NCBI GenBank assembly: GCA_018005585.1
Contig: JAGMZX010000035.1
Location: forward strand, 1-44,595
DNA: 44,595 nt
Direction: 5' to 3'
Source: Candidatus Hydrogenedentota bacterium
GTDB lineage: Bacteria > Hydrogenedentota > Hydrogenedentia > Hydrogenedentales > JAGMZX01
Position numbers and translations under genes: made by a program. Each line of letters begins with the position of its first letter. Position 1 is the first letter of the stretch. This document shows, piece by piece, positions 4,910-40,686 of this stretch. Under the pieces are notes generated by a model, which saw only the letters and a list, made by a program, of their open reading frames with translations, ran no database searches and was not told where the DNA came from.

Positions 4910-5866
4910 TCACTCGTCTTGCGCGCGACGGCGCGCGGGATCGAAGTGACGGCGGCGCGTTGCCGCGATACGCGGCAGCCGGGCGAGGCAGTGCGCGGCG
5001 ATGTTCAAGGCATGCCACGCGCCTCGGGGCCACGGCGCCATGGCGCAGGCGAGGCTCGTCCCGGTTGCGGCGGCCAGCATGCGCAACACATTGCGGGAGA
5101 GGCCGTGGTGCGGATCCTTGAGCAGAAAAAGATACCGCGCCTGCGTTTCATTCCGCCAGCGGTGAAAGACGGCGCGCGTGTCCCGCGGCCCGGGCGGCTC
5201 GCTGAGTTTGCCATGCGCGTGATACAGATACGCTCCGGGGGCAAGCAGAATCTCACAACCCAGCCAGCGCGCGCGTGCGCACAGGTCGTCGTCGATACCG
5301 TAGAACCAGAACAGGGGATCAAATTCGCCCACCAGTTCCCAGACGTCCCGGCGCGCAAAAATGGCCGCGCCGATAATGGTGGGCAACGGGTAGGTCTGGC
5401 GCAGCGGCCGGCCGAGTACCGCGTCTTCGATAAGCTCGCGCGCCCGCAGTATGTGTTTGTAGGCGTTATTGTCTATCCTGCCCGGCTCGCGGAAATTGAG
5501 TTGCAGCGGCGTAAACAAGCTGCAGGGACGCGCATCGGAAGCGGCTACAAGACACTCGGCCGACCCAGGGGCAAGTTCCGTGTCGTCGTTCATCACGAGC
5601 ACATGCGTCGCGGCGCCATCAGCCAGGAGCGTCGTCATGCCGCGATTCAGCACCTCGACAATGTGACGGTTATCGGGAGTGCGTTGCACCTGCACGCGCT
5701 CGCCAAACGACGCGGCCACTTCAGACGTTTCGTCCGTAGAGCCGTTGTCCATCACAAGCACGCGGATATCGAGCATCTCGTTTGCGTCGCGCAGCGCGGA
5801 CGCAATACACCGGTTCAGGAAGTCGGCGCGATTGTACGCGGTGATAAGGACGCGAAGCTGAACCAC
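4910..5866 (-). CDS. Family 2 glycosyltransferase
   Basis: GT-A fold glycosyltransferase of the rhamnosyltransferase-like GT2 group, acting at the cytoplasmic face on surface-glycan precursors. From the GTG at 5866 (318 residues; GGTGGAG is 5 bases upstream) the protein starts QLRVLITAYNRADFLNRC, the nucleotide-binding beta strand. It continues with VMDNGSTDET, the DxD-like metal site VLVMNDDTEL, and the acceptor/base region GEFDPLFWFYGIDDDLCAR. The C-terminal RWRNETQARYLFLLKDP is common to this group. An upstream in-frame ATG at 5902 is an alternative start with a poorer ribosome site. Donor and acceptor sugars cannot be deduced. It may be co-transcribed with the ferredoxin gene 25 bases downstream. 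Confidence 0.9.
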   Translation of the reverse strand: MVQLRVLITAYNRADFLNRCIASALRDANEMLDIRVLVMDNGSTDETSEVAASFGERVQVQRTPDNRHIVEVLNRGMTTLLADGAATHVLVMNDDTELAPGSAECLVAASDARPCSLFTPLQLNFREPGRIDNNAYKHILRARELIEDAVLGRPLRQTYPLPTIIGAAIFARRDVWELVGEFDPLFWFYGIDDDLCARARWLGCEILLAPGAYLYHAHGKLSEPPGPRDTRAVFHRWRNETQARYLFLLKDPHHGLSRNVLRMLAAATGTSLACAMAPWPRGAWHALNIAAHCLARLPRIAATRRRHFDPARRRAQDE

Positions 5867-6407
5867 GGATGCTCCACCTTGCGGCAGGTCTCTGCCGGCC
5901 ATCGACTGGCCTGCCGGCCGCCGCGCATCCTGCCTGAACGCGCCGGGGCAACGCAATTCCGGCTTGGGGCCGCGGCCGCTTCCCGCCCGGAAGGAAGGCG
6001 CGAGCACCCGCCTTCGCGAAATACCCCGGCCCGGCGGTCGCCTCGCCTTCGTTCACGATCATCTTGAGACGGCCGTCGCGCGGCTGGGTGACACCGAGAT
6101 TCGTGACCGGGCCGGGGCGGGTTTATCGGCTCAAACACGGCAGTCTTCCCTTTCTCTGTGTGTTGGTTCCCATGGTTAGGCACTGTCTCCGCCGGATTGC
6201 ATACCGGGACGCGTCAAGCCGAGCACAAGAACTGGACGGCGCAGAAGACGAAAAGGACACCGGCGGCGTGAACCAAGCTGCTTGTCCTTGAACGCTCCCT
6301 TGGGTTCTCTCCGTCGTTTCCTTGGTAATCGTCCTTGGCCGCTGCCGTCCCTGGAATCCCGCTGAGACCCGGTATATGCTTGCGTTTCTCGCACGGGAGA
6401 CGATGGC
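5867..6407. other. Divergent intergenic region, no supported gene
   Basis: This stretch of about 540 bases separates the leftward glycosyltransferase gene from the rightward mannosidase gene. Short open frames exist on both strands, but none has a good ribosome site together with recognisable protein. On the minus strand, about 6000-6120, one frame reads like ordinary protein (GVTQPRDGRLKMIVNEGEA) but is bounded by a stop just upstream, so it may be a decayed gene fragment. A weak promoter for the mannosidase may be CTGGAA (6351-6356) with TATATG (6373-6378). Confidence 0.4.
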
Positions 6408-9002
6408 ATGCGCGTAGCATTCCCCTTCACACTGCTGTTGGCGCTGACGGCCGCGGCCAGCGCCCCCCCCGAACCGCCGCCGGCCGAGGAGAACGGCGGC
6501 GGGGAAACCGGGACTCCCGCGATCGCGCGCGGCCTGACGTTCGTGGGGCACGCGCACATCGACCTTGCCTACCGCTGGCGCTGGAACGAGACGGTGTCGT
6601 GGATCACGCGGGACACGTTCCTGGGCGTCCTGGAGGTGATGCGGCAGGAACCCGGCCTGACTTTCGTGCAGAGCCAGATGGCGCTCTACGACGCGGTCAT
6701 GCGCGCCTATCCGGACCTGTACCGCGAGATCAAGGCAGAGATAGCCGGGGGCCTCTGGGCACCGGTCGCCGGCATGTGGTCGGAGCCGGACGTGATCTTC
6801 CCGTCGGGCGAATCGTTCATCCGGCAGCGGCTCGCCGGCGCGCAGTTCCTGCGCCAGGAATTCGGCTTGCCGCCCGACGCCGTGATGTGGGTGCCGGATT
6901 CGTTCTGCGGTCACGCGGGCACGCTTCCGGCCATTTTGGGCCGGTGCGGCATCAAGTACTACGTCCTCATGCGGGGGGCGCCGCCGGACATGCCGGTCTT
7001 CTGGTGGGAAAGCAGGGACGGCACGCGCATCCTGGCCTATTCGCTGCCCCTGCCGTACGATTTTGAACTAGGCAAGCTGACGCCGCGGGTGCTGCGCGGG
7101 ATGGAGGACTGGTTCAAGCACGCATGCGGCGTGCAGAACGCAATGGTGCTCTTCGGCACGGGGGACCATGGCGGCGGGCCGCGCATGAAGGACGTGGAAC
7201 GGAAGCGCGCGCTGGAACGGACGGCCAACGGCCCCGCGGTCAGCTACGGCAGGCCGGAGACGTATTTCCGGGAACACGTCGACCCGCACGGCGGCGCATT
7301 TCCCGTGCATCGCGGCTCGCTGGGCGCCCTGGAAGGCATGCCGTTCCTCAGTCAGGCCGGGCTCAAACAGTTGAACCGCCAATGCGAGCACCTGCTGCTG
7401 ACGGCGGAGAAATTCGCGGCCCTGGGTGCGTGCTACCAGTGCAAGCCCAGTTATCCGCGTGTCGATTTCGCCGAGGTTTGGAAACGCCTTCTGTTCAACC
7501 AGTTTCACGACATCATCGCGGGCACAAGCAATGGCCGGGCGTGCGACGATGCGCGCGCGGAACTGACGTGGGTGCTCGCGGAAGGCCAGGCGCTGCTGGA
7601 CCAGGGTATCGAGCACATTGCCGGGCGCATCGACACGCGCGGCGACGGGATTCCGCTGGTTGTTTTCAATCCCCTCTCCTGGGACAGAACCGATGTCGTC
7701 GAGGCGGTTATCCGCTGTGTGGAGCCCGTGGACACGCTTGCGCTCCGCGACAAAGACGGCGTCGAAATGCCGTATCAAGTGCTGGGCTTGGACGCGGAGC
7801 GCAGGCAGTGGCGCATTCTCCTTCTGGTTGAGCAGGCGCCGTCCCTCGGGTACAAGACGGTTCGGGCATATCCCGGCCAGACCCCCGCGTTCGAGACGGC
7901 GCTCCGTGCGTCCGTCACGGCGCTCGAAAACGAGTACTTGCGCGTAAACCTCACGGAGACCGGCACGGTGGCCGGCATATTCGACAAGACCGCGAACCGC
8001 GAGATGCTGAGCGGGGAGGGCAACGTGTTCAGCCTGATGCGCGAGGGCAACGTGAGTTCTTCCTGGATGGCCGTTTTCGACGGCAGCGAGAAAGAACTCG
8101 AGGCGGCGGGCGCGCCACGGCTCGTGGAAACGGGGCCGGTACGGGCCGTGCTGCGCCGTGCATTCCATTCCGAAGATTCGACCTTCGACGTGGATGTGGT
8201 CCTTTGCGCGGGCGCGCCCCGGGTCGAATTCGTCTTCAATGCGGACTGGCACGACAGGGACGCCACGCTCCTCGTGCGTTTTCCAACGGTGGTGAACGGC
8301 GGCGCGGGGGCCGTCGAACTGCCGTACGGTTTCGAGGAGGCCGCGAGCGATGGAACACGCCGCTGCGCGCACAATTGGGTCGACCTCTCGAACACAGACT
8401 GCGGCGTGAGCCTGCTGAACGACGGCCGGTACGAGTTCTACCTGGAGGGCGCATCTCTGCGCATGGGCGTACTGCGCGGCGCGCACGACATGGACCCGCG
8501 CATGGACGAAGGCGCGCACCGGTTACGGTACGCGCTGTATCCCCATGCCGGACCCTGGCGCGACGCGGGCACGGTGCGCCAGGCGTACGCGCTGAACAAT
8601 CCGCTCATCGCGGCGCAGGAGCCGCACCACGACGGGCGCCTCGGCGACTACCTTTCCCGCAGCAACGATTACGCGCTGCCGCCGGAATTGTCCTTCTTCC
8701 GCGTGTCGCACCCGGACGTCATGGTGTCCGTGGTCAAGATGCCGCAGGCGGAGTGGACGTCGGACGGGGAAATAGTGGTCCGGCTCGTGGAGACCTCGGG
8801 CCGTGCGGCGTCGTGCGTGCTGACCACGCCGTTCCGGCTGCTGCGGGCCATCGAGACGGACCATCTCGAGCAGACGACCCTGCGCGACGTGGAAGCCAAG
8901 GACAATGCGGTCCCGTTCGAGTTCGCGCCGGGAGAGGTCAAGACGGTCATCCTGCGGCACGGCGCCGTGAATACCGTGATCGAGAACGTCCCGCCAGCAT
9001 AG
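6408..9002 (+). CDS. GH38 alpha-mannosidase, secreted
   Basis: Retaining, zinc-dependent alpha-mannosidase of glycoside hydrolase family 38; 864 residues, in the usual range. The start has GGGAGA upstream and gives a signal peptide (MRVAFPFTLLLALTAAASA), so the enzyme is exported. Visible motifs are the Zn site GHAHIDLAYRW (H50, D52), the nucleophile region VPDSFCGHAGTLPAIL (D164), the second metal-site region GTGDHGGGPRM, and FNQFHDIIAGTS. These are followed by the mid-domain and the long C-terminal beta-sandwich. The nucleophile loop has Cys where many homologues have Gly (PDSFC for PDxFG), a minor oddity. It presumably trims alpha-mannosides from glycans or oligosaccharides. It is convergent with the rhamnose mutarotase gene, only 14 bases separating the stops. 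Confidence 0.95.
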   Translation: MRVAFPFTLLLALTAAASAPPEPPPAEENGGGETGTPAIARGLTFVGHAHIDLAYRWRWNETVSWITRDTFLGVLEVMRQEPGLTFVQSQMALYDAVMRAYPDLYREIKAEIAGGLWAPVAGMWSEPDVIFPSGESFIRQRLAGAQFLRQEFGLPPDAVMWVPDSFCGHAGTLPAILGRCGIKYYVLMRGAPPDMPVFWWESRDGTRILAYSLPLPYDFELGKLTPRVLRGMEDWFKHACGVQNAMVLFGTGDHGGGPRMKDVERKRALERTANGPAVSYGRPETYFREHVDPHGGAFPVHRGSLGALEGMPFLSQAGLKQLNRQCEHLLLTAEKFAALGACYQCKPSYPRVDFAEVWKRLLFNQFHDIIAGTSNGRACDDARAELTWVLAEGQALLDQGIEHIAGRIDTRGDGIPLVVFNPLSWDRTDVVEAVIRCVEPVDTLALRDKDGVEMPYQVLGLDAERRQWRILLLVEQAPSLGYKTVRAYPGQTPAFETALRASVTALENEYLRVNLTETGTVAGIFDKTANREMLSGEGNVFSLMREGNVSSSWMAVFDGSEKELEAAGAPRLVETGPVRAVLRRAFHSEDSTFDVDVVLCAGAPRVEFVFNADWHDRDATLLVRFPTVVNGGAGAVELPYGFEEAASDGTRRCAHNWVDLSNTDCGVSLLNDGRYEFYLEGASLRMGVLRGAHDMDPRMDEGAHRLRYALYPHAGPWRDAGTVRQAYALNNPLIAAQEPHHDGRLGDYLSRSNDYALPPELSFFRVSHPDVMVSVVKMPQAEWTSDGEIVVRLVETSGRAASCVLTTPFRLLRAIETDHLEQTTLRDVEAKDNAVPFEFAPGEVKTVILRHGAVNTVIENVPPA

Positions 9003-23619: not shown

Positions 23620-24474
23620 ATGATTCGGCAGAACCGCACCAGATTACACGGCTTCACACTGATTGAACTGCTGGTCGTTATCGCGATCATCGGCATTCTC
23701 GCGGCGATTCTGCTGCCCGCGCTGGCGCGCGCCCGCGAGGCCGCGCGGCGCTCGTCCTGTCAGAACAACCTCAAGGAGATCGGGCTCTCGTTCAAGATGT
23801 ACGCGAACGAGGAGCCCGGCGAATTCTTCCCGACGCAGTTTCCGGGGTACTACCCGGAATTGGGCGGCGCGCCCGTGCCCGGGCACAGTTTCTTCTGGGG
23901 GCCCGCGGTCTATCCCGAGTACATGCCGGACTACAACATCATCTTCTGTCCGTCCGACCCCGCGGGACTCGAAAAGAAGACGGTTATCGACGAACTCGTC
24001 CGCCTTCGTTTTCCGGAAGTGGCGCAGCAGTTGCGCGACTACTCATATATGTACCTCGGCTGGGCCATGCGTCAGGATGAAGACTGGGGCCTTTGGAAAT
24101 CCGCCTCGGGCGACGCCCGAAACTCGGACAAGATCCTTCCCGAGAGTTTCGTGACGGCCGATATCCAGGACGGCGATTACACGCTTTACCGCCTGCGCGA
24201 GGGCATCGAGCGATTCCAGGTGACGGACATCAACAACCCGGGCGCAAGCGCGATGGCGCAGAGCACGCTTCCCATCATCTGGGACATTGTCTGCGCAAAC
24301 CCCGGCGGCGACGGCAATCAATTCAACCATGTGCCCGGCGGCATGAACTGCCTCTTCCTGGACGGCCACGTGGACTACCTCCGCTATCCCTCAGATTTCC
24401 CCTGCACGGAGTATCTCGCGGGTAAACTCGGCAAAGGCGGTCCCACCGATCCCACCGTCCCGGCTTCCATCTAG
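23620..24474 (+). CDS. Prepilin-like H-X-DG protein (DUF1559-like), copy 1
   Basis: A 284-residue type IV pilin-like protein. A short leader ([11 protein letters not shown]) precedes the prepilin cleavage site [19 protein letters not shown], with Glu at +5. The hydrophobic helix is followed by [22 protein letters not shown]. The C-terminus has the processing-associated motif in its H-X10-DG form ([20 protein letters not shown]). These proteins are abundant in Planctomycetes and relatives and are thought to be pseudopilins or surface fibres made through a type II secretion/pilus machine. GGAAGGAG precedes the ATG. A paralogue sits at 26743-27726, identical through nearly all of the N-terminal 40 residues. 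Confidence 0.93.
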
Positions 24475-25366: not shown

Positions 25367-25405
25367 ATGGAGGCGGGCCCCGCAAGGGCCAGGAGAAGAC
25401 GCAGT

Positions 25406-26443
25406 ATGACTGGAGCGGGCAGCAAGCAGAAACGGAAGATCACGACCAGCGACCTGGCCCGGCTGAGCGGGGTGTCGCGTTCCACTGTTTCAGCGGTGTT
25501 GAACGGGAAGCGGAGCGTGCGCGAGGCGACGCGCGCGAAGGTGCTCGCGTGCATTCGGGAACAGCGATACGACTCCGGGCTGATTGCGCGGACGCTGCTG
25601 GGTGAGTTGTCGCGGATCGTGGCGGTGCTTGCGCCGAATCTCGGCAGTCCGTATCACATGATGTATTTCCAGGGCCTGCAGGACATCCTGGGAAAGGAAG
25701 ACTTCCACCTGCTCTTTCACAATGTGCGCCCGGAGGACCAGGAAGACCCCGCAACGCTTGAGAGTATTCACGCCTACCGTCCCGCAGGGTTCATCATTCT
25801 GCGCGGGGCGGAGGGGCCGCAAGCGGAGCATGCGCGCAAGGTGGTGGAAGAGGGGGTGCCGCTCGTATGTGAAATGCCGATTGACGGTCTGGAAACCCAC
25901 GTCGTCGGTTTCGACCAGCGCGCGGCCATGAAACTCGCGGCGGACTATGTTATCGAGAAAGGCCACCGGAGGCTTGGCCACATTGCGGGCCCGTCGTTTT
26001 CGCACGGCGCGCGGGAACGGAAAATTGGCTTTCTGGAAAGCCTGGTCCAGCACGATATGCCCTTGTCGGAGGCTAATATCCTCGATGCGGGCGAAACCGC
26101 GGCCGATGGATACGTGGCCGCCCTGGAAATGCTGCGCGACCCGGCCACGCGGCCCACGGCTGTGCTGTGCTTCAACGACATGGTCGCCATGGGCGTGTTC
26201 CGCGCCTGCCACGAACTCAAAATGAACATCCCGGCCGACGTGAGCGTCGTCGGCTACGACGGCATCGAATTCGCGGCCCTGTTCGGGCCGCCGCTGACCA
26301 GCGTGAACATCTTCCCCACCGAGATGGGCCGGAGGGCAGGCGAGGTGCTCGTCCGCGCAATCCGGAACGAGGCCGGGCGCGGCGCGACCACGACATGGAT
26401 TCCATCAGAGTTGACCGAGCGCGGGTCCGTGCGCGCGCTGTAA
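25406..26443 (+). CDS. LacI-family transcriptional regulator
   Basis: A 345-residue repressor-type regulator. The ATG at 25406 has AGGAG 10 bases upstream. The N-terminal helix-turn-helix is KITTSDLARLSGVSRSTVSAVLNGKRSVREATRAKV (residues about 10-45, read as overlapping segments). The periplasmic-binding-protein-like sensor domain follows: IVAVLAPNLGSPYHMMYFQG, YVIEKGHRRLGHIAGPS, AVLCFNDMVAMGVFRACHEL, VSVVGYDGIEFAALFGPPLT and the closing WIPSELTERGSV. The effector is probably a sugar or sugar phosphate. Likely targets are its own promoter and the following genes (prepilin-like, GH172, GH116-like, hydrolase fusion), judging only by position. Confidence 0.92.
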   Translation: MTGAGSKQKRKITTSDLARLSGVSRSTVSAVLNGKRSVREATRAKVLACIREQRYDSGLIARTLLGELSRIVAVLAPNLGSPYHMMYFQGLQDILGKEDFHLLFHNVRPEDQEDPATLESIHAYRPAGFIILRGAEGPQAEHARKVVEEGVPLVCEMPIDGLETHVVGFDQRAAMKLAADYVIEKGHRRLGHIAGPSFSHGARERKIGFLESLVQHDMPLSEANILDAGETAADGYVAALEMLRDPATRPTAVLCFNDMVAMGVFRACHELKMNIPADVSVVGYDGIEFAALFGPPLTSVNIFPTEMGRRAGEVLVRAIRNEAGRGATTTWIPSELTERGSVRAL

Positions 26444-26639: not shown

Positions 26640-26742
26640 GTAGCCGCACTCTTCCATGGCAGCCGGATAGCCGGCCGCAATGCGTGAGGCCAATGACGCG
26701 GTCATGCGGGTCCCGCGCACAACACACCGAGGAGGATGGGTC

Positions 26743-27726
26743 ATGAAAGGGAAAGGGTTCACACTGATTGAGCTGCTCGTGGTTATTGCCATCATTGGCA
26801 TTCTGGCGGCGATCCTGCTGCCGGCGCTGGCCAGGGCGCGGGAGGCGGCACGCCGGTCCAGCTGCCAGAACAACCTGAAGGAATGGGGCATCGTGTACAA
26901 GATGTATTCGAACGAGGATCCGGGGGAGAGGTTTCCGCCGATGCAGGCGGGCGCCTGGTATGGCGGGGCAGGCACATTCATCAGCGGTTCGGAGTCCGAC
27001 TTCAGTCTGGGGCCGGCCGTGCGCACGGTCTATCCGGAATACTTGACCGACCCGAACATCGCGTTCTGTCCGTCCGATGCGGGCGCGGAAGACCGGATTG
27101 CAGACCCTGACGGCAACCTGTCGGAAGAGCCGACGGACAATTGCTTCGGGTACATGTCGTGGCACGGCACGCGGTGCATGCGCGCCGTCGACGGCAGCTA
27201 CGGCTACGTCGGGTGGGTCTTCGACCAAGCGGATGACGATGACCCGAAGACGGCGGCCGACATCTCGCTAGGCACGGTGACGATTCCGGCGGGTGCGTCG
27301 CAGCAGGTCGTGAACTGGGCGCTGTACGTGATGTTAACCGGCCCTGGCGCGGCGCAGATGGCGGCGCAGGTGTCCAGCGGCCGGGAGGGCTTCGTGCCGT
27401 TTGTGGACGAGGACATGCCGGTGCCGGCCCCCAGCGGCAATTCGGGGTCCGATACGTTGTACCGTCTGCGGGAAGGCATCGAGCGCTTCTTGATCACCGA
27501 CATCAACAACGCGGCCGCAAGCGCGCAGGCGCAGAGCGAGGTGTACATCATGTGGGATGCCGTGTCGACGGTGGCCAGCGCGTACAACCACATTCCGGGC
27601 GGCGCGAATGTGCTGTACATGGACGGACACGTGGATTACATCCGCTACGACGAACGTGGCGATGCGCCGAGCAACGGCCCGCTGGCCAGGGTGGTCGGTC
27701 TGTTCGGCGACGACGACATGAGCTGA
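26743..27726 (+). CDS. Prepilin-like H-X-DG protein (DUF1559-like), copy 2
   Basis: A 327-residue paralogue of the protein at 23620. The ATG at 26743 (GAGGAGGA upstream) gives a very short leader MKGKG before [20 protein letters not shown]. The C-terminal motif is [20 protein letters not shown] (H-X10-DG). Segments shared with copy 1 include [17 protein letters not shown] and the FCPSD strand. A central insertion (about 140-230) is unique to this copy. The DNA of the two N-terminal regions differs mostly at third positions, so the duplication is old and the helix is under strong selection. It is probably exported and assembled as a pseudopilin. Confidence 0.93.
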
Positions 27727-27758: not shown

Positions 27759-27987
27759 AAGCGCGCGCACAAGACGGTGACAAACCGCGCCGACCCGGTC
27801 GCCATGATGGTACTATTGTCGAGATGCGGACAGTTGGCGGCATGCCGCCAGTCGTCCGCTGTGTCCGGCAAGCGCCACGCGCCGTATGGGCGTCTATCCC
27901 GCGCCGAGCAGGGGAGGTGACGGTCGTATCTGCTCGCAAGGCGTTTTTCGAGGGCCGGAAACTGGATTCCGCCACGGGAGGAAGGCA

Positions 27988-29490
27988 ATGCAGTGCGTGC
28001 GCGTTTTGACCGCATTGGTGCTCGGGGCGATTGCGGCCACGGCAGTACCTGCGGGGCCGGCGCCGGCAGACGGGGGCATCCTGGCCGGTCTGCCCGCGCT
28101 CAAGGATTACACCGCCGGGCGGGTTTCGAGCTATGACCCGACGGGAGGGAACGCCGACGGCCGCCACGACTGGCCGATCCAGCCGGGCGAGACGCGCACT
28201 ATCGCCGACATCGCGGGCGCGGGCGCGGTCACCCATCTGTGGTTCACGATTGCGTCGAAAGACGAGCATCACCTGCGCAATCTCGTGCTGCGCATGTACT
28301 GGGACGGCGAGGAACAGCCTTCGGTCGAGTCGCCAATCGGCGATTTCTTCGGGCTGGGCCACGCGACGTACTACCAGTACAGCAGCCTGCCGATTCAGAT
28401 TGGCACGGACCGCGGGCTGAACTGTTTTTGGCGCATGCCATTCGGGAACGGCGCGCGCATCACGGTGACAAATGACGGGCCGCTCCCCTGCCTGGCGTTT
28501 TATTACTACGTGGACTACCATCGTTATGGCGAGGCCCCGGCGGACGAGGGGCGCTTTCACGCGCAGTACCGGCAGGCGTTTCCCTGCGAGCCGGGCATCA
28601 ATTACGTCTTCCTGGAGGCAACGGGCCGCGGGCATTTCGTGGGGTGCAATCTCTCGGTGCACAACCGGGCTGGGGGTTGGTGGGGCGAGGGGGACGACAT
28701 GTTCTACGTGGACGGGGCAACCGCGCCCTCGCTGCACGGGACGGGTTCGGAAGACTATTTCTGCGGGGCATGGTGCTACGGAGAGTCCGGCACGCTGACC
28801 TTCAGCAATCCCTATTTCGGTCTGCCGTTCAACAAGGGCGGCAACACGCAGAACGCACTCTGGAACGTGTACCGCTACCATCTCGAGGACCCGGTCCCGT
28901 TTGCGCAGTCGATTCGCGCGACGATCGAGCACGGTCACGGGAACACGCGCAAGGACGATTTCGCCTCGGTGGCGTACTGGTACCAGACGGAGCCGCACGC
29001 GCCCTTCCCCCCGTTGCCAGAGGCCGGAGACCGGATGTTTACGGAGGCCGTCACCTTCACCGAGGACTGGGCTATCGAGGCGGAAACGCTGGCGCCCGCG
29101 TTTCAGAACGCGCAGGTGACGGCGCAATCGACGCTGGACTTCGGCAATTTCTGGAGCGGCGGCGAACACTTGTATTTCGATGCGGACGGGCCGGCGGTTT
29201 TTCGCGCGAATCTGCCCACATCGGCGAGCGATGCGGGCAACTACCTCCTCGACGTGTGGTACACGGCGGGGCCGGACTACGGCCAGTGCGAACTGTGGGT
29301 CAACGGCGAGAAAACATGTGCCTGGGATGGTTACAACGCGGACGGAGTGGTCCGCAGAAAGCTGGACAGCGCCGCGCCGATCTCCATAGAAAAAGCCGGG
29401 AACGTGATAGAACTGCGCGTGACGGGCAGGAATGAGGCGTCGCGGGGGTTCAAGGCGGGTTGGGACTGCCATCGCGTCGCCCCGCGATGA
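27988..29490 (+). CDS. GH172/DUF2961 glycoside hydrolase family protein
   Basis: A 500-residue exported protein. The ATG at 27988 (GGGAGGAAGG upstream) gives a signal peptide ending near PAGPAPA. DUF2961 landmarks are the N-terminal YTAGRVSSYDPTGGNADG, IAGAGAVTHLWFTIAS, LVLRMYWDGEEQPSVESPIG, FFGLGH, NCFWRMPFGNGARITVTN and LHGTGSEDYFCGAWCYGES, whose Glu is the expected catalytic residue. The C-terminal part after about residue 360 (AIEAETLAPAF, NFWSGGEHLYFDADG, LDVWYTAGPDYG) is a beta-sandwich, carbohydrate-binding-like addition. Characterised GH172 enzymes release alpha-D-fructofuranose or D-arabinofuranose. The substrate here is unknown. Confidence 0.92.
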   Translation: MQCVRVLTALVLGAIAATAVPAGPAPADGGILAGLPALKDYTAGRVSSYDPTGGNADGRHDWPIQPGETRTIADIAGAGAVTHLWFTIASKDEHHLRNLVLRMYWDGEEQPSVESPIGDFFGLGHATYYQYSSLPIQIGTDRGLNCFWRMPFGNGARITVTNDGPLPCLAFYYYVDYHRYGEAPADEGRFHAQYRQAFPCEPGINYVFLEATGRGHFVGCNLSVHNRAGGWWGEGDDMFYVDGATAPSLHGTGSEDYFCGAWCYGESGTLTFSNPYFGLPFNKGGNTQNALWNVYRYHLEDPVPFAQSIRATIEHGHGNTRKDDFASVAYWYQTEPHAPFPPLPEAGDRMFTEAVTFTEDWAIEAETLAPAFQNAQVTAQSTLDFGNFWSGGEHLYFDADGPAVFRANLPTSASDAGNYLLDVWYTAGPDYGQCELWVNGEKTCAWDGYNADGVVRRKLDSAAPISIEKAGNVIELRVTGRNEASRGFKAGWDCHRVAPR

Positions 29491-29505: not shown

Positions 29506-30477
29506 GTGATGGGAAAGGATGCGTGCGGGTGCGGCGGGGACGCATGCGGCAGCGGGAAACGACCCGCGTGGGGACGGCGGCAATTCCTGAAGGCCGCGGG
29601 CATGCTTGCGGGCATGATCGGCGAGGCGCGGCTGGCCGCGTGGGCGGAGGGAACTCCGGGCGCGGGCAAGGCGCACGGGGAGCTCATCCCGGCGGAAAAG
29701 CACCTGTCGCCGGAGTGGCTCGCCGCGCTGCGCGCACGGGGAGACAAGGAAGTATTCGCGGGCGCGGCGCTCGAAAACATAGCGATGCCGTGCGGCGGCA
29801 TCGGCGCGGGCCAGCTCTATGTCTGCGGCGACGGGACACTGGGCGGCTGGGGTATTTTCAACGATGCGGCGTCGAACTGGGTGGATAGCACGTTCGCGAC
29901 CTATGCCCATCGCGGCGTCGCGAAGACGGTAGCGCAGGGATTCGGCATCACGGTGCGGGCGTCTGACGGTGCGCCGCTGTTCAAGACTCTGGACCGGCGC
30001 GATTTCGCCGAGGTCACGTTTACCGGTGAATACCCGGTCGCTACGATCCGGTATTCAGACGCGGCGTGTCCCGTGTGCGTCACGATGGAGGCTTTCTCGC
30101 CGTTCATTCCGCTCAACGCCGAAGATTCCGGCCTGCCCGCAACGGTCTTTCACATCACCGTGGAGAATATCCGCGGCGAGGCGGTTGAAGCGGCCGTGTC
30201 GGGCTGGCTGCAGAACGCCGCAGGGCGGGCCTACGCGCTGGAGTACGACATCAGGCCACGGACGCGCTACGAACAGCGCGACGGCTACGCCCTGTGCCTG
30301 CACTCGGCCGAGGCGGCCGCGCCCGAAGCGGCCGCCACGAAGTCGGCGGAAGCGGCTCTGCGCGCCGCGCCCGTGCCGGTTGCCGTGGACGTGCGGGACA
30401 CAAAGACGGTGGTGCGTTTCGAGCCCCCGTTGACGGTATGCGCCGGGGACCGGCTCGAACTGGTGCTGCGCGGGTGA
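29506..30477 (+). CDS. GH116-type N-terminal domain protein, lacking the catalytic domain
   Basis: A 323-residue protein with a Tat signal (GRRQFLKAAGMLAGMIG) after a Cys-rich start (DACGCGGDACGSG). The segment AALENIAMPCGGIGAGQLYV and the following TLGGWGIFND are the beginning of the GBA2-type beta-glucosidase N-terminal beta-sandwich (family GH116). The protein ends at RLELVLRG, about where that domain would finish, without the (alpha/alpha)6 catalytic domain that makes family members about 800-950 residues. It is either a stable remnant of a truncated gene or an unusual standalone domain. GTG 29506 is 7 bases after GGGGAG; the ATG at 29509 is an alternative. Gene spacing to both neighbours is short, suggesting one transcript. 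Confidence 0.8.
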   Translation: MMGKDACGCGGDACGSGKRPAWGRRQFLKAAGMLAGMIGEARLAAWAEGTPGAGKAHGELIPAEKHLSPEWLAALRARGDKEVFAGAALENIAMPCGGIGAGQLYVCGDGTLGGWGIFNDAASNWVDSTFATYAHRGVAKTVAQGFGITVRASDGAPLFKTLDRRDFAEVTFTGEYPVATIRYSDAACPVCVTMEAFSPFIPLNAEDSGLPATVFHITVENIRGEAVEAAVSGWLQNAAGRAYALEYDIRPRTRYEQRDGYALCLHSAEAAAPEAAATKSAEAALRAAPVPVAVDVRDTKTVVRFEPPLTVCAGDRLELVLRG

Positions 30478-30522
30478 GTCCGCGCAGCCTGTGCGCGCAG
30501 CGTAACAAGAAGGAGCGGCATT

Positions 30523-32457
30523 GTGAAAAGGGCAGGCATTCTGGTCTTGTGCGCGGTGATTGGTCTCGCGGTCATGGCGGCGGCCCAGGTCCCCGCGGAG
30601 GCGACGTTCGAGAAGGACCTCGTCTACGGCCGCGCGGACGGCGTAGACCTGAAGCTGGACATGGCGCGTCCCGCCCGGGCGGAGACGCCCGCGCCCGCCG
30701 TGGTCTGCATTCACGGCGGCGCGTGGATGAGCGGCAGCAAGAACGACTACGAAATGGTGCTGCGCCGGTTCGCCGCCGACGGATACCTGGCGGTGGCCGT
30801 GGAATACCGCTTCGCGCCCGCGCACCCCTGGCCCGCGCAAATCGAGGACGTCAAATGCGCCGTGCGCTATTTGCGCGCGCGGGCCGCGGAACTGCACATC
30901 AACCCGGAAAAGATCGGCGCGGTCGGTGATTCCGCGGGCGGGCACCTTGCGCTGCTTTCCGGGCTGATGGACGCGAAGGACGGGCTCGAGGGCGACGGCG
31001 GCAACGAGGGTGTCTCGAGCAAGGTACAGGCGGTTGTGAACATATACGGGCCGGTGGACCTGCGCACGTGGCGCGTGCTGCCGGAAGCGGAGGCGGCGGC
31101 CGCGGCGGCGTTTGGCAAGAGTTCCGAGCAGATGCTTGCCGATTTCGCGGGCACGGCGGACCGGAATGACCCGCGGATCGCGCAGGCCTCGCCCGTGACC
31201 TATATCGACGCGGGCGACCCGCCGGTCCTGACCTATCACGGGACCAAAGACGCGATTGTGCCGTTCGATCAGGCCGCGACTCTGCAGGCGCGGCTGGAAG
31301 CGGCGGGCGTGAAACACGAATTCGTGCCATTCGAAGGCGGTGTCCATGGCCTGGACCTCGTGCAGGTCGGCATTGTGACGCAGGGAACCTTGGCCTTCTT
31401 CGACAAGTGGCTGAAGGGCGAGACGCCAGCCGAGGAAACAGCCGGCGAAGAAGCGCCGCCGTTCGAGGCGATTCCCAAGATTGACGCGCATGCGCACGCG
31501 TTCGATGACATGCCGGAGTTCGCGGCGTGGCTGGAGCGGAACAACCTGCGCCTGATCAACATCTGCCTGTACGGGAACCGGCCCGAGGCGCTCGCACCGC
31601 TGGAGGCGCAAGCAGCCCACCTGCACCGGTTCTACCCGCGCGTGTATTCCTTCGCTTCGACCTTCGACCTGACCCGGCGCGACCAGCCGGGCTACGCGGA
31701 CGAGGTAACGGCGTGGCTGGACCAGACGTTCGCGGAGGGCGCGGTGATGGTGAAGCTGTGGAAAGAGGTTGGCATGCAATTAAAGGGGACCGACGGAAGG
31801 TACCTGCTGCCCGACGATCCGGTGTTGGACCCGGTCTGCGCGCATCTCGCCGCGCGCGGCAAGCCGCTCTTGCTGCACGCCGGAGACCCCGTCGACGCGT
31901 GGCGCCCGCTCGACCCCGAGAGCGCCCATTACCGCTATTTCTCGTCGAATCCGGAGTGGCACATGTACGACCGTGCGGATGCCCCGGATTACGAGGACAT
32001 TCTGGCCGCGGTGGACCGGTTATTGGAGAAGCACCCCGACCTGACCGTGGTCGCGGCCCATCTGGGCAACATGGCCCACGACGTGGACCGCGTGGGAGCG
32101 TGGCTGGACCGCCACCCCAACTTGTACGTCGATGTTTCGGCCCGCTTGCCCGACCTCATGCGCCAGCCGGTGGAGAAGATCCGCGCCTTTTTCATCAAGC
32201 ACCAGGACCGCATTCTGTACGGCACCGACATCGACCCCTGCCAGTTCCCTGCGCCGGGGCCCATCGCCGCGGAGAAGCGGGACGCATACCTCTGGGCCGC
32301 GGAGGCGCGATACCGGAACGAATACGCGTATTTCGCGGGATCCGGCACGAGGAATCCGGGCGATAGCGAGGCGGCGTGCCTCGCCCTGCCGCGCTCCGTG
32401 CTCGAGAAACTCTACCACGCCAACGCCGAGCGCCTGATCCCCGAACTCGCGCCGTGA
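30523..32457 (+). CDS. Fusion of alpha/beta-hydrolase (BD-FAE-like) and amidohydrolase_2 domains
   Basis: A 644-residue secreted protein. The GTG start has AAGGAG 7 bases upstream and gives a signal peptide (GILVLCAVIGLAVMAAAQ). Domain 1 (about 30-300) is a carboxylesterase of the BD-FAE/esterase-lipase type: oxyanion HGGAW (64-68), nucleophile elbow GDSAGG (S137), acid D243 (GTKDAIVP) and H275 (GGVHGLD), a complete triad. An acidic linker (300-315) follows. Domain 2 (about 318-640) is a metal-dependent amidohydrolase_2: HAH (323-325), K411, H452 (LLLHAGDP), H513 (AAHLGN) and D569 (LYGTDID), all metal-site residues present. Joining these two domains in one chain is unusual. An ester cleaved by the first domain might yield the substrate of the second, but this is conjecture. 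Confidence 0.9.
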   Translation: MKRAGILVLCAVIGLAVMAAAQVPAEATFEKDLVYGRADGVDLKLDMARPARAETPAPAVVCIHGGAWMSGSKNDYEMVLRRFAADGYLAVAVEYRFAPAHPWPAQIEDVKCAVRYLRARAAELHINPEKIGAVGDSAGGHLALLSGLMDAKDGLEGDGGNEGVSSKVQAVVNIYGPVDLRTWRVLPEAEAAAAAAFGKSSEQMLADFAGTADRNDPRIAQASPVTYIDAGDPPVLTYHGTKDAIVPFDQAATLQARLEAAGVKHEFVPFEGGVHGLDLVQVGIVTQGTLAFFDKWLKGETPAEETAGEEAPPFEAIPKIDAHAHAFDDMPEFAAWLERNNLRLINICLYGNRPEALAPLEAQAAHLHRFYPRVYSFASTFDLTRRDQPGYADEVTAWLDQTFAEGAVMVKLWKEVGMQLKGTDGRYLLPDDPVLDPVCAHLAARGKPLLLHAGDPVDAWRPLDPESAHYRYFSSNPEWHMYDRADAPDYEDILAAVDRLLEKHPDLTVVAAHLGNMAHDVDRVGAWLDRHPNLYVDVSARLPDLMRQPVEKIRAFFIKHQDRILYGTDIDPCQFPAPGPIAAEKRDAYLWAAEARYRNEYAYFAGSGTRNPGDSEAACLALPRSVLEKLYHANAERLIPELAP

Positions 32458-34536: not shown

Positions 34537-36366
34537 TTATTCCGTCACGCCGCATGATTCTTCGCGCGTCCCCCACCGCGCGATCGCGGCCTGCGTCTGT
34601 GAGGGGTTGTGCTGCATGCGGATGCGCCAGATCAGTTCCTCAGGGAGCACGACGCGGATACCGGTGGGCAGGCGGTCCACGCACCAGCCCACGGGCTCGT
34701 ATCCCCGAACACCGCCGTATTTCGCTGCGTCCGTCTGGTCCATGTTCTCCGCGTCTTCGTCGGGCCCGGGCGCATGGCGGAAGAACGACCACGCATGAGT
34801 GATCACCCAATCGAGCTGCTGGCGGCCTTCCCGCGCCGCCTGCGCGGCCGACTCGCCAATCTCGCGCGCAATCTTCGCGGGCGTGCCCGCGCGCGGCCGT
34901 TGGTTCGAATGCTCCCAGATGGCGTATCGGGCGGAAACGACGGGCACGTCCCAGCCGCGCGCGTCCTGCACCCATAGGACCGTGCCCGCGCCACCTTCGT
35001 ACGGGTAGTACTGGAACGCGAGGATGCCGAGCAGTCCGTCCATCTCGCGCGCATATGTTTCACAGGCGCGCCGGGCCTCGGGCGCGGAGAAATCGCCGAA
35101 GTTGAACGCGATGATGCGCGTCCCCGTTTTCCGCATGTGCGCCCAGGTGCGCCGCGCGTGCCGCGCGAGCAGTTCTTCCGCATTCGAGCGGTTCAACGCG
35201 AATTTGTCGGGGTAGAAGTAGCCGCCTCCCCATTCGATGAATGCGTCGTTGCGCGACTGCGTGCCCACGCAATAGGCCAGCATCTCCGGGCAAAGCTGGA
35301 CCAGTTGCGAGAAACAACAGGACCAGCCAAAAGGGAAACGGCCGCGCCCGGGGTTGCCGTACCAGCTGTCTCCCTGCGCGCGCGCGAACCCGCCCAGGTA
35401 CCATTGCACATTGTCACCGTCGGTAATGACGAAACTGACCGCGGGGCGCCGGTCGCTCCAGTCTATGCGCGCGGGATCGACGTGACGAGGGCGCGGGACA
35501 GCCGACTGGTCCGAGGCGGCCATCAGCAGGGGCAGGTTCAGGCACCAGTTCGTGGCGCTCTGGATATGGCCCTCGAGACTGGTCATGAGCGTGGCCTTGT
35601 ATTCGTCGCCGCCGTTCCAGCCGAGCACGGGCGATAACGGTTCGAGCCACGCCAGAATCGACGGCACGGGTTCCTCGAAACCGTACACGGCGATAGCCCG
35701 TTGGGCGATGGCGAAATCGCGCGTGTGGGGGCATCTCGGGTCCTGCGTGCAGACCATGTGCCTGCTGAACCGGTCCCGGTACGCATCGAAAACCCACTGC
35801 TGCGTCTTGCCGCGCGCGTCGAAGAGCAGCGCAAGACCGCGCGCCATGGCCTCGCTTTCGAGGCACTCCTCCACGACCGCGCCGTCCAGCAGGCCCGCCA
35901 GGCTCGTGGCGACGTTGATGGACAAGTCCATGCCGTGCCGGTGCTGGGCGGTCTCGCCCTCCGAAGTGTCGCGGCGGTACAGGATATAACCCTTGACGAT
36001 GCCTTGGTGCGCGAACCGCTCGGCCAATTCCCACGGCGATAGGACGCCGCGCACCTCGAGGTTGAGCCGCGCGAGCGTGTGCGCGTACCAGTCTTCGTAG
36101 TCCGGATTATTCCAGGCGAGCCAGACCATCTCGTCGCCACGACCCTCATTCACGGCCTTGGCCGCAAGCCCGGCCAAGGATTCGGTCAGCATGTGCAGGG
36201 GCATATTGTCTGCGCACGCGGCCGTCGCGGCGGGCAAGACAACGCGTATAACCGCGCTGGGCGCTGTCTGGACCGGCCACCAGCGGGCTTCGCCCTCTTC
36301 CGCGGCATGGGCAACGCCGGTCAAGAGCATCAGGCCGGGCAAAATCGCGCGGAATGCGAAACGCAT
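34537..36366 (-). CDS. GxGYxYP-family putative glycoside hydrolase, secreted
   Basis: A 609-residue exported protein. The ATG at 36366 has GGGAGA 7 bases upstream and gives a signal peptide (MRFAFRAILPGLMLLTGVAHA). It carries the family landmarks: an N-terminal domain containing WYAHTLARLNLEVRGVLSPWELAERF, then FVITDGDNVQWYLGGF, and the naming motif GGGYFYPDKFA. Later come NFGDFSAPEARRACETYARE and WVITHAWSFFRHAPG. Such proteins occur in polysaccharide-utilising Bacteroidetes, Planctomycetes and relatives; no biochemical activity is firmly established, so the function is only carbohydrate-related by association. A possible TATGCT -10 lies upstream, around 36437-36442. Confidence 0.9.
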   Translation of the reverse strand: MRFAFRAILPGLMLLTGVAHAAEEGEARWWPVQTAPSAVIRVVLPAATAACADNMPLHMLTESLAGLAAKAVNEGRGDEMVWLAWNNPDYEDWYAHTLARLNLEVRGVLSPWELAERFAHQGIVKGYILYRRDTSEGETAQHRHGMDLSINVATSLAGLLDGAVVEECLESEAMARGLALLFDARGKTQQWVFDAYRDRFSRHMVCTQDPRCPHTRDFAIAQRAIAVYGFEEPVPSILAWLEPLSPVLGWNGGDEYKATLMTSLEGHIQSATNWCLNLPLLMAASDQSAVPRPRHVDPARIDWSDRRPAVSFVITDGDNVQWYLGGFARAQGDSWYGNPGRGRFPFGWSCCFSQLVQLCPEMLAYCVGTQSRNDAFIEWGGGYFYPDKFALNRSNAEELLARHARRTWAHMRKTGTRIIAFNFGDFSAPEARRACETYAREMDGLLGILAFQYYPYEGGAGTVLWVQDARGWDVPVVSARYAIWEHSNQRPRAGTPAKIAREIGESAAQAAREGRQQLDWVITHAWSFFRHAPGPDEDAENMDQTDAAKYGGVRGYEPVGWCVDRLPTGIRVVLPEELIWRIRMQHNPSQTQAAIARWGTREESCGVTE

Positions 36367-36490
36367 GTTCGAGTCTCCCGGCCGGTTGTTCTGATGTCTT
36401 GCCGCGCGGCTCGAGCCCTTCTGCCCGAAGGAAAGCATAGCCGTCTATGAGGTCGGCGCGCGGGAGACGCGCGGTTGTCCGCGTGCGGGA

Positions 36491-38082: not shown

Positions 38083-39483
38083 CTATTCAGATTGCGCGGC
38101 GGGCGCTGGAAGCTCGCGCGCGGCGACAATGCCGCCGTAGGCAAAACCGGTCCCCTTGATTGTGCTGATGTCGACCTGGCCATTGCGGCGCTGGTAGATG
38201 CCGGGGTGTGTTCTGGCCTCGGGCAGGCTAGCTTCCGGGTAAAACTGCATGGCGTTGGTTTCGACGCCCATGATTGTCCCCGCGTGCGCGGCGAGCAGGC
38301 AATGGGGCACCTGCGCGAGCATCGGATTGGTGAGGTCCTGCACCATGAGCATCATGCCGTGGACCTTGGCCCAGCACAGGGCCAGCAGCGCGCCGGTCTG
38401 CGTCTTGCACGTCTTCAGCGCGACGCCCGTCCAGCCGAGTTCGCGGCCCAGTCTCACGAGCCGCCAGTCGTGCGCGCTCTCATCCATGAACAGCGGCTTG
38501 CGCGCGGATACGCTATGCACATCGATGCGGTTTTGTTCGAGTTCATAGGGGAACGGTTGCTCGACGTAGAGGATCATGCCGTATATGCGTGGTTGCTCGA
38601 TCAGCAATTGATCGAGAATATCGGCGACGTAAGCGGGTTCGGAGACGGTCGAGTTGAAGTCGGCAGAAAGCCAGTTCACGTTCTCTTCGATTGCGATCTG
38701 GCCAACGCGGACGAGCCGGTCGTAATCCCAGGCGCGGTCATTGCCGCGCAACTTGATCTTGAGGCACTTCAAGCCGTCGGTGCGGATCCAGTCGCGCAAC
38801 AGCACGGGGTAACCGTCCTCGGGTTCCGAGCCGTCGCGCTCGCTCTCGTCGATCCAGTCCTTGCCGCCGACAAGGTGCCATGCGGGCATGCGGTCCGGGC
38901 GCGGGCGCACCAGGAAATGCTCGGGATAACGGCCGGAAAAACTGGCGCCCGCGTCGCCGGCGGGCCCGAAGAAATGGGCAAGATCCCTGCTCATGTATTC
39001 GTCGGTGTAGGCATCGTAGATGTAGACTTGGCGCAATCGGCCGAAGGCGTCGTGCAATGCGATGTCGAAAGCGCTGCAACACACCAGCGCCGCGAGCCAC
39101 GGCACGGGTTCGCCGCCACGCTCGGCGTTGAACGCGGCGAGCATCTCTCGGAGGCGCCCCTCGATGAAAGCGTGGCCCACTTCCATCGGATGTCCCGCGA
39201 CGTCAAAGACAGCCCATTCCCTGACAAGCCGGCGCGTGAATTCCATGAGGGCGGTGTGGCGTTCCCCGTACGAGAGGCTGCTCGGCCAGACCCACTGCAC
39301 GCTCAGCGGCGTTTCGCCCCAGCCCTCGGCGCTATGCCCTTTCGCGTCCTCGACACGCAGCCGCACGCGCGCACAGGTGACGCTGGTCAGTGTTTCAGGC
39401 CCGAACTTGAGCGGCACGCGCGTCTCGACGGGCAGGAAGTACAAGGCGGCGGCCTTCGGGCGGATATCAGTCGGCTTGGGCAT
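38083..39483 (-). CDS. Enolase-superfamily (mandelate racemase/muconate lactonizing type) enzyme
   Basis: A 466-residue cytoplasmic protein. The ATG has GAGGAA upstream and a perfect TATAAT -10 (39534-39529, minus strand). The capping N-terminal domain includes EGWGETPLSVQW. The barrel shows KIK (K242, K244), SADFN (D275, N277), VEQPF (E308), DES (D334, E335) and LKTCKTQTG (K357/K360), the expected metal ligands and general bases. The family abstracts the alpha-proton of carboxylates: acid-sugar dehydratase, racemase or cycloisomerase. It is longer than typical members (about 370-400) because of an insertion around 150-230. The substrate is undetermined; an acid sugar would fit this neighbourhood. 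Confidence 0.88.
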   Translation of the reverse strand: MPKPTDIRPKAAALYFLPVETRVPLKFGPETLTSVTCARVRLRVEDAKGHSAEGWGETPLSVQWVWPSSLSYGERHTALMEFTRRLVREWAVFDVAGHPMEVGHAFIEGRLREMLAAFNAERGGEPVPWLAALVCCSAFDIALHDAFGRLRQVYIYDAYTDEYMSRDLAHFFGPAGDAGASFSGRYPEHFLVRPRPDRMPAWHLVGGKDWIDESERDGSEPEDGYPVLLRDWIRTDGLKCLKIKLRGNDRAWDYDRLVRVGQIAIEENVNWLSADFNSTVSEPAYVADILDQLLIEQPRIYGMILYVEQPFPYELEQNRIDVHSVSARKPLFMDESAHDWRLVRLGRELGWTGVALKTCKTQTGALLALCWAKVHGMMLMVQDLTNPMLAQVPHCLLAAHAGTIMGVETNAMQFYPEASLPEARTHPGIYQRRNGQVDISTIKGTGFAYGGIVAARELPAPAAQSE

Positions 39484-39570: not shown

Positions 39571-40686
39571 TCAGCCTTCCAGGAGCATGTGAATGCCTGG
39601 GATGAGGATGTCCCAGAATCCGTCGGTCGGTTCGGCGGGCGTCCATTCGACCTGGATATCTTCGAGACGCGCGCCGGTGATGTCGATGAGTTGCCTGTAG
39701 ATTTGGCCGATGCCTTGATGGTACGCCATCGCGAGGTGGCGCGTTTCGGTGACCTCCTGGCCGATAAGACGCGCCGCGGTGGCGTCCGCCGCGGCGAGGT
39801 CTGTGCTGGCGAGAAGCACCCACGCGCCGAGCCGTTCGCGCATGTCGACGGTCGTGCCCCAATAACCGGGAAGGACGTGGGGACCATTGCCTTCGCAGCC
39901 GATGGAACAGTCTATGATTGTGAAGTCGGGTCTTACCGCGTTGACGATATCGAGAAATGCCTGTTCGATGCCCGCGTTGTGCAGCCGGAAACGCCAGGGT
40001 CCGCCGAAGCCGTAGTCGTTGACGGACGTCACGCCGACGAAGTTCTTCATGGATGCCGTTATTTGGGTCCAGCGGTGCGTCTTGAGCACGGGCAGCGAAA
40101 TCACGCGGTCCGCGTCGAGGAGCAGACTGGAAACCTTGATATGCCCGAGGCGCGTGCAGGAGGGCACCGGACGCCACGCGGGCGATTCCGAGTTGAGGCA
40201 CGCGAGACGCAGGCGCCCGCCATAGCGCGCGTTCAACTGGTTGGCCGCGGCCCGCATGTTCGTGGACCCGTCGAGGGTTTGCAGCTCCTCCCACGAGTAC
40301 ATGGGCACTTGCGCCGCGTCGCCGACGGTCACCCGCGACGCGCCCGCCTTCAAACACTCCTCAGCAACGGCGAGAATGATCTCCGGCTTCGTCGAGTCGC
40401 CGGCGGTGACCGAGTTGTGCCGGACCAGGCCCGCGGCGCAGAAGTTGGCCTTGATGAAAACGCTCTCGCCGGGATTGACGATACTCGCGATGCCGCCGCA
40501 GGCGTCGACCGCATCCCGGGCCATCTGGGCAAGGTCCAAACCCGTAATCGCAGCCACCAGCGCACGGCTGTTCACCGGCGCGTACGGCGGTGCCGCGGGG
40601 CAGCCCGATAGGGCAGCGCTTGCGGCCAGGGCAGAAGATGCGTGGACCCCCCTGCGCATAAAATCGCGGCGCGATAACGTCTTCAT
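39571..40686 (-). CDS. DUF362 domain lipoprotein with Tat-type signal
   Basis: A 371-residue protein. The N-terminus MKTLSRRDFMRRGVHASS carries a twin-arginine motif (R6-R7) and then a lipobox LSGC (C29), so it is probably a Tat-exported lipoprotein. The DUF362 core shows NPGESVFIKANFC, GASRVTVGDA, ADRVISLPVLKTHRWTQITA and MKNFVGVTSVNDYG, followed by AVRPDFTIIDCSIGCEGNGP and the VLLASTDLAAADATAARLIG ending, all standard for DUF362. The family includes many proteins with extra 4Fe-4S domains; this one lacks them. Function is unknown. It is head-to-head with the LolA-like gene. Confidence 0.9.
   Translation of the reverse strand: MKTLSRRDFMRRGVHASSALAASAALSGCPAAPPYAPVNSRALVAAITGLDLAQMARDAVDACGGIASIVNPGESVFIKANFCAAGLVRHNSVTAGDSTKPEIILAVAEECLKAGASRVTVGDAAQVPMYSWEELQTLDGSTNMRAAANQLNARYGGRLRLACLNSESPAWRPVPSCTRLGHIKVSSLLLDADRVISLPVLKTHRWTQITASMKNFVGVTSVNDYGFGGPWRFRLHNAGIEQAFLDIVNAVRPDFTIIDCSIGCEGNGPHVLPGYWGTTVDMRERLGAWVLLASTDLAAADATAARLIGQEVTETRHLAMAYHQGIGQIYRQLIDITGARLEDIQVEWTPAEPTDGFWDILIPGIHMLLEG

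What the first reader, a model, noticed from the sequence alone, without database searches (positions are those of the whole stretch)
30523..32457. Alpha/beta-hydrolase fused to a metal amidohydrolase
The protein joins a BD-FAE-like esterase with a full triad (S137, D243, H275) to an amidohydrolase_2 domain with all metal ligands (HAH, H452, H513, D569) through an acidic linker, behind one signal peptide. The separate domains are common, but I do not know this two-domain chain. Secretion suggests sequential processing of an ester-linked polysaccharide or lignin-type substrate, for example release of an acid that the second domain hydrolyses or decarboxylates. It sits directly after GH172 and GH116-like genes.
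Basis: partly seen in the sequence, partly recalled or inferred. Interest (0 to 1): 0.62.

Follow-up and report, generated by a model that had tools for sequence, protein, structure and literature searches.

The report
Fused secreted esterase and metal hydrolase
A bacterium has joined two neighbouring sugar-polymer "undressing" genes, an esterase and a metal-dependent hydrolase that its relatives keep separate, into one secreted two-headed enzyme; it is a real and apparently rare fusion, but of a familiar kind.

Summary
One open frame (30523-32457, 644 aa, good ribosome-binding site) encodes a signal peptide, a BD-FAE-type esterase with its triad (S137/D243/H275), a 13-residue linker and an Amidohydro_2 domain with HAH, H452, H513 and D569. 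I add K411, invariant in 31 diverse relatives. It aligns without gaps on the carboxylated metal-bridging lysine of ochratoxinase, which predicts a two-metal hydrolase rather than a one-metal decarboxylase. The fusion is probably not an assembly join. A relative from another family (G067) carries the same two genes adjacent and in the same order after GH172, as separate secreted proteins. G009 carries both within one GH172/GH116/LacI cluster. The join lies where the second protein's signal peptide would end. No other fused copy appeared among about 1,085 genomes sampled in four phyla. Relatives of the second domain are instead fused to GDSL lipase, ceramidase-like or CBM9 modules, and a Verrucomicrobiota relative has a sulfatase-esterase fusion nearby. 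I read this as a recent fusion of two accessory enzymes of a polysaccharide-degradation cluster that remove different substituents. New variant of a known kind; substrate unknown.

The parts
30510..30515 (+). ribosome-binding site AAGGAG, 7 bases before the GTG start
   Evidence: sequence
30523..32457 (+). fusion gene, 644 aa, esterase + amidohydrolase
   Evidence: same open frame in the whole-genome copy, the only copy there
30523..30588 (+). predicted signal peptide, about residues 1-22 (VKRAGILVLCAVIGLAVMAAAQ)
   Evidence: read from sequence; low-confidence N-terminal helix in the AF2 model; no signal-peptide program available
30604..31416 (+). esterase domain, about residues 28-298; triad S137, D243, H275; Pfam BD-FAE PF20434
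31417..31455 (+). acidic linker GETPAEETAGEEA, residues 299-311
   Evidence: sequence; pLDDT below 50 at residues 301-307; replaces the stop, spacer and signal peptide seen in relatives
31456..32454 (+). amidohydrolase domain, residues 312-644; H323, H325, K411, H452, H513, D569 invariant
27886..29490 (+). GH172 (DUF2961) glycoside hydrolase, same cluster
   Evidence: Pfam E 8.6e-88; PDB relatives are difructose dianhydride I synthase/hydrolase and exo-alpha-D-arabinofuranosidase
29506..30477 (+). internally deleted GH116: N-terminal domain joined to the last ~45 residues, catalytic domain missing
25367..26443 (+). LacI-type regulator conserved with the cluster in G009 and G016
26680..27726 (+). 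prepilin-like secreted protein conserved with the cluster in G009 and G015

Best explanation
The gene is a genuine, recent, in-frame fusion of two adjacent accessory genes of a LacI-regulated polysaccharide-degradation cluster. The product is exported by the esterase's signal peptide and carries two independent active sites on a flexible acidic tether. The N-terminal BD-FAE-like esterase removes acyl groups (acetyl or feruloyl type) by a Ser-Asp-His mechanism. The C-terminal domain is predicted to be a two-metal hydrolase with a carboxylated lysine (H323, H325, K411, H452, H513, D569) that cleaves a second substituent (ester, lactone or amide) on the same glycan or its oligosaccharides, so that glycosidases such as GH172 can act. 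Shown here: frame, domains, residues, separate neighbouring genes in relatives, lone occurrence. Inferred: export, regulation by the LacI protein, metal count, substrate, and action on the same glycan.
For: Domains, triad and metal residues. In G067 (another family) the order is GH172, esterase, 33 bp, amidohydrolase with its own lipobox signal, then a sulfatase. In G009 all cluster genes lie within ~10 kb. Thus in all three genomes of the phylum with close relatives of both halves, the two are fused, adjacent or in one cluster. The fused sequence resumes at the mature N-terminus of the amidohydrolase. AF2: both domains confident, overall pTM 0.61, linker disordered, so no fixed mutual arrangement. 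K and H of the domain align ungapped with K246 and H287 of ochratoxinase (ligands from PMC11342369). Relatives of the second domain carry CBM9, GDSL or ceramidase-like modules, and a Verrucomicrobiota genome has a sulfatase-BD-FAE fusion ~2.3 kb from its amidohydrolase.
Against: The fusion was seen in one multi-contig assembly only, with no reads to inspect. The adjacent GH116 also has an in-frame internal deletion, which could mean a locus in decay or an assembly collapse. The ochratoxinase match is weak overall (E 0.011) and the two-metal site is predicted, not modelled with metals. No substrate evidence exists for the second domain, and it occurs without this esterase in most genomes.
Confidence: 0.5

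Rival explanations
1. Sequential processing: the esterase releases an aromatic or other acid and the Amidohydro_2 domain decarboxylates or hydrolyses that released acid.
For: Nearest solved folds are gamma-resorcylate decarboxylase, LigW, LigJ, LigY and ACMSD; the esterase family can release ferulate (PMC8165983).
Against: Those matches share 10-17% identity; the invariant strand-4 lysine points to two-metal hydrolysis; CBM9-fused relatives suggest polymer-directed action; released monoaromatics are usually imported and handled in the cytoplasm (general knowledge).
Confidence: 0.12
2. Assembly artefact: two separate genes joined by a false deletion.
For: Single assembly, 288 contigs; the neighbouring GH116 also looks internally deleted.
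Against: In frame, resumes exactly at the mature N-terminus of the second protein with an acidic linker; uniform codon pattern; no unfused second copy in the genome; the same gene order in G067 is what a real fusion would start from.
Confidence: 0.06
3. Chance or neutral fusion: the two enzymes were merely neighbours, the fusion brings no joint function, and the locus is decaying.
For: Truncated GH116 beside it; only one fused case among genomes sampled.
Against: All catalytic residues of both halves are intact and the two are repeatedly neighbours in related clusters.
Confidence: 0.25

Closest known systems
BD-FAE, bifunctional feruloyl/acetyl xylan esterase (PF20434; PDB 6xyc, 6tkx; PMC8165983)
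   Same: fold, Ser-Asp-His triad, Pfam match E 4.5e-57, found in polysaccharide clusters
   Different: single-domain esterase; here fused to a metal hydrolase; 27% identity, specificity untested
GH43-CE bifunctional enzyme BACEGG_01304 (PDB 6mly)
   Same: a related esterase domain fused to a second carbohydrate-active enzyme
   Different: partner is a GH43 glycosidase, not an amidohydrolase
Amidohydro_2 decarboxylases and hydratases (gamma-resorcylate decarboxylase, LigW, LigJ, ACMSD)
   Same: Pfam family and barrel fold; strand 1, 5, 6 and 8 metal-site positions
   Different: mononuclear; this family has an additional invariant strand-4 lysine and less than 20% identity
Ochratoxinase and other subtype-I amidohydrolases
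   Same: complete ligand set HxH, K, H, H, D; ungapped match over the K and strand-5 H
   Different: another Pfam family (PF01979 type, my knowledge); weak similarity only, E 0.011
Secreted Amidohydro_2 proteins of Planctomycetota and Verrucomicrobiota fused to GDSL lipase, ceramidase-like or CBM9 modules
   Same: the same second-domain family, multi-module architecture
   Different: other partner and often other domain order; none has the BD-FAE esterase

Membership tests
BD-FAE esterase (PF20434) | profile match above gathering score | tested here: met
   193 bits against a cut-off of 26.8
BD-FAE esterase (PF20434) | Ser-Asp-His triad | tested here: met
   S137, D243, H275 conserved in close relatives
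BD-FAE esterase (PF20434) | feruloyl and acetyl xylan esterase activity | not testable with these tools
   needs purified enzyme
Amidohydro_2 (PF04909) | profile match above gathering score | tested here: met
   53.5 bits against 26.4
Amidohydro_2 (PF04909) | barrel fold of the family | tested here: met
   AF2 pLDDT 91, pTM 0.91; Foldseek best hits are Amidohydro_2-type structures, TM about 0.5
Mononuclear Amidohydro_2 decarboxylases | one metal held by strands 1, 5 and 8 with no bridging lysine | tested here: inconclusive
   the ligands are present, but an invariant strand-4 lysine is too; metal content unknown
Subtype-I binuclear amidohydrolases | HxH, strand-4 Lys, strand-5 His, strand-6 His, strand-8 Asp | tested here: met
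   all six residues invariant in 31 sequences; strand placement from AF2
Subtype-I binuclear amidohydrolases | lysine carboxylation and two bound metals | not testable with these tools
   needs structure and metal analysis

The most novel reading that the evidence does not exclude
The second domain represents an uncharacterised, widespread family of mostly exported two-metal hydrolases (57 of 237 Myxococcota, 45 of 392 Planctomycetota, 18 of 388 Verrucomicrobiota and 8 of 68 own-phylum genomes sampled) that remove a still unknown non-sugar substituent from glycans, a new kind of carbohydrate-modifying enzyme; natural fusions to an esterase, a GDSL lipase and CBM9 would be the clues to its role.
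Probability: 0.3. Interest if true: 0.6.

Novelty: new variant of a known kind. Interest (0 to 1): 0.36.

Why it matters
Gene fusions are strong hints of shared function. This one ties an exported amidohydrolase family of unknown substrate to a characterised class of carbohydrate esterases within a GH172/GH116 cluster, and so gives a concrete assay to try (acylated glycans, with and without the esterase half).

Tried and rejected
A genome-contig scan with the fused protein found only single-domain relatives; its patterns are short exact peptides, so it is not exhaustive. Long open frames (600 aa or more) around amidohydrolase hits in Planctomycetota, Verrucomicrobiota and Myxococcota were fetched and checked: other module fusions, or GC-rich read-through before a signal peptide, never BD-FAE. 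PDB sequence search with the second domain found only weak or partial hits (best single-sequence E 0.0054; none at E 0.01 with the 17-sequence profile). Whether the truncated GH116 is a chimera with the genome's other GH116 genes: rejected, about 50% protein identity only. Literature searches gave no described fusion of this kind.

Full report
What is there. The + strand ORF 30523-32457 encodes 644 residues from a GTG with AAGGAG seven bases upstream. GC by codon position is constant through the frame (esterase half 0.72/0.46/0.85, amidohydrolase half 0.69/0.43/0.87), so nothing suggests a hidden frameshift. Pfam finds BD-FAE (PF20434, 45-258, E 4.5e-57) and Amidohydro_2 (PF04909, 381-638, E 4e-14).

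Is the fusion real? I looked for the two halves in whole genomes. In the window's phylum (68 genomes held), close relatives of the amidohydrolase occur in few genomes, and of the esterase in more. In G067, from another family, a 3.8-kb contig reads GH172 (partial), esterase 510-1454, a 33-bp gap, amidohydrolase 1488-2597 with its own lipobox signal peptide (AGAGC), then a sulfatase. In G009 the amidohydrolase, a LacI regulator, a prepilin-like protein, GH172, the esterase and a 1,081-aa GH116 all lie within about 10 kb. G016 and G015 keep parts of this cluster with the esterase. The window cluster is the same set (LacI, prepilin-like, GH172, GH116), with esterase and amidohydrolase fused. Compared with G067, the fusion lost the esterase's tail and stop, the spacer and the second signal peptide, and gained or kept a 13-residue acidic linker; homology resumes at the mature N-terminus (FEAIPKIDAHAH against FEEMRKIDVHVH). 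The genome holds no unfused second copy. I therefore regard the fusion as real, with the reservation that only one assembly shows it.

How rare is it? No other ORF joining both halves was found among 151 loci, nor among the amidohydrolase hits in 392 Planctomycetota, 388 Verrucomicrobiota and 237 Myxococcota genomes (phylum names taken from the record titles of the centre loci), where every listed hit in an open frame of 600 aa or more was examined. These are samples, not all genomes. The amidohydrolase family is widespread there and is often modular: with GDSL lipase (L119, L120), with a ceramidase-like domain (L127, L128) and with CBM9 modules (for example L116, L117, L118, L122). In the Verrucomicrobiota genome G624 a sulfatase-BD-FAE fusion lies about 2.3 kb from a 45%-identical amidohydrolase on the same strand. 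The neighbourhood signal esterase + amidohydrolase + sulfatase thus recurs in two phyla.

The second active site. Aligning 31 diverse relatives leaves 17 invariant columns, including H18, H20, K106, H147, H208 and D264 of the domain (H323, H325, K411, H452, H513, D569 of the protein). In the AF2 model these sit at strands 1, 4, 5, 6 and 8. A profile search of PDB sequences aligned the stretch with K106 and H147 without gaps to ochratoxinase (E 0.011), placing them on chain residues 204 and 245; assuming the construct is offset by 42, these are K246 and H287 (my residue count). In ochratoxinase these are the carboxylated bridging lysine and a metal histidine (PMC11342369). Decarboxylases of the same Pfam family hold one metal through Glu/His-x-His, His and Asp (PMC8187880). 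So I predict a two-metal hydrolase. This is inference: similarity is weak and no metal was modelled.

Structure. The full-length model has mean pLDDT 91.8 but pTM 0.61, with the linker (301-307) below 50; the domains look like beads on a string with no predicted channel. Foldseek places the esterase next to rumen and gut carbohydrate esterases (6nkf, 6xyc, 6tkx) and the second domain among Amidohydro_2 decarboxylases and hydratases at TM about 0.5.

Mechanism. Most likely: export by one signal peptide; acyl removal by the esterase; hydrolysis of a second substituent by the metal domain; glycosidases follow. CBM9-bearing relatives and the sulfatase neighbours favour action on glycan-bound groups. 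The substrate stays unknown; GH172 relatives with known activity act on furanosidic linkages.

Novelty. Both domains are known families and multi-module carbohydrate esterases are known (for example the GH43-CE enzyme 6mly). The combination was not found described in the papers I could search, which is weak evidence of absence. I file it as a new variant of a known kind.

Noticed in passing
window 29506-30477: GH116-like ORF is internally deleted in frame: N-terminal domain (to about residue 276) joined to roughly the last 45 residues of GH116, lacking the catalytic domain (local score 54 against a shuffle maximum of 41 with the G016 relative; not significant against G009 alone). Real deletion or assembly collapse not settled.
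   Followed up: partly
L119, L120, L127, L128, L116-L118, L121, L122, L124, L126, L129: Planctomycetota and Verrucomicrobiota relatives of the amidohydrolase domain are fused to GDSL lipase, ceramidase-like or CBM9-like modules (Pfam-confirmed for L116-L120, L122, L127, L128; the rest read from sequence).
   Followed up: partly
L136:884-3367 (-) and 5701-6906 (-): Verrucomicrobiota genome with a sulfatase-BD-FAE fusion close to a 45%-identical amidohydrolase.
   Followed up: partly
L043, L046: In two genomes of one family the amidohydrolase gene lies beside what look like murG/ftsW-type cell-wall genes and an HD-domain gene, a conserved but different neighbourhood.
   Followed up: no
window 23620-24474 and 26680-27726: Two prepilin-like proteins with nearly identical N-termini ([42 protein letters not shown]).
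   Followed up: no
window 34537-36438 (-), 38083-39483 (-), 39571-40686 (-): GxGYxYP putative glycoside hydrolase, an enolase-superfamily protein and a DUF362 protein on the opposite strand downstream.
   Followed up: no
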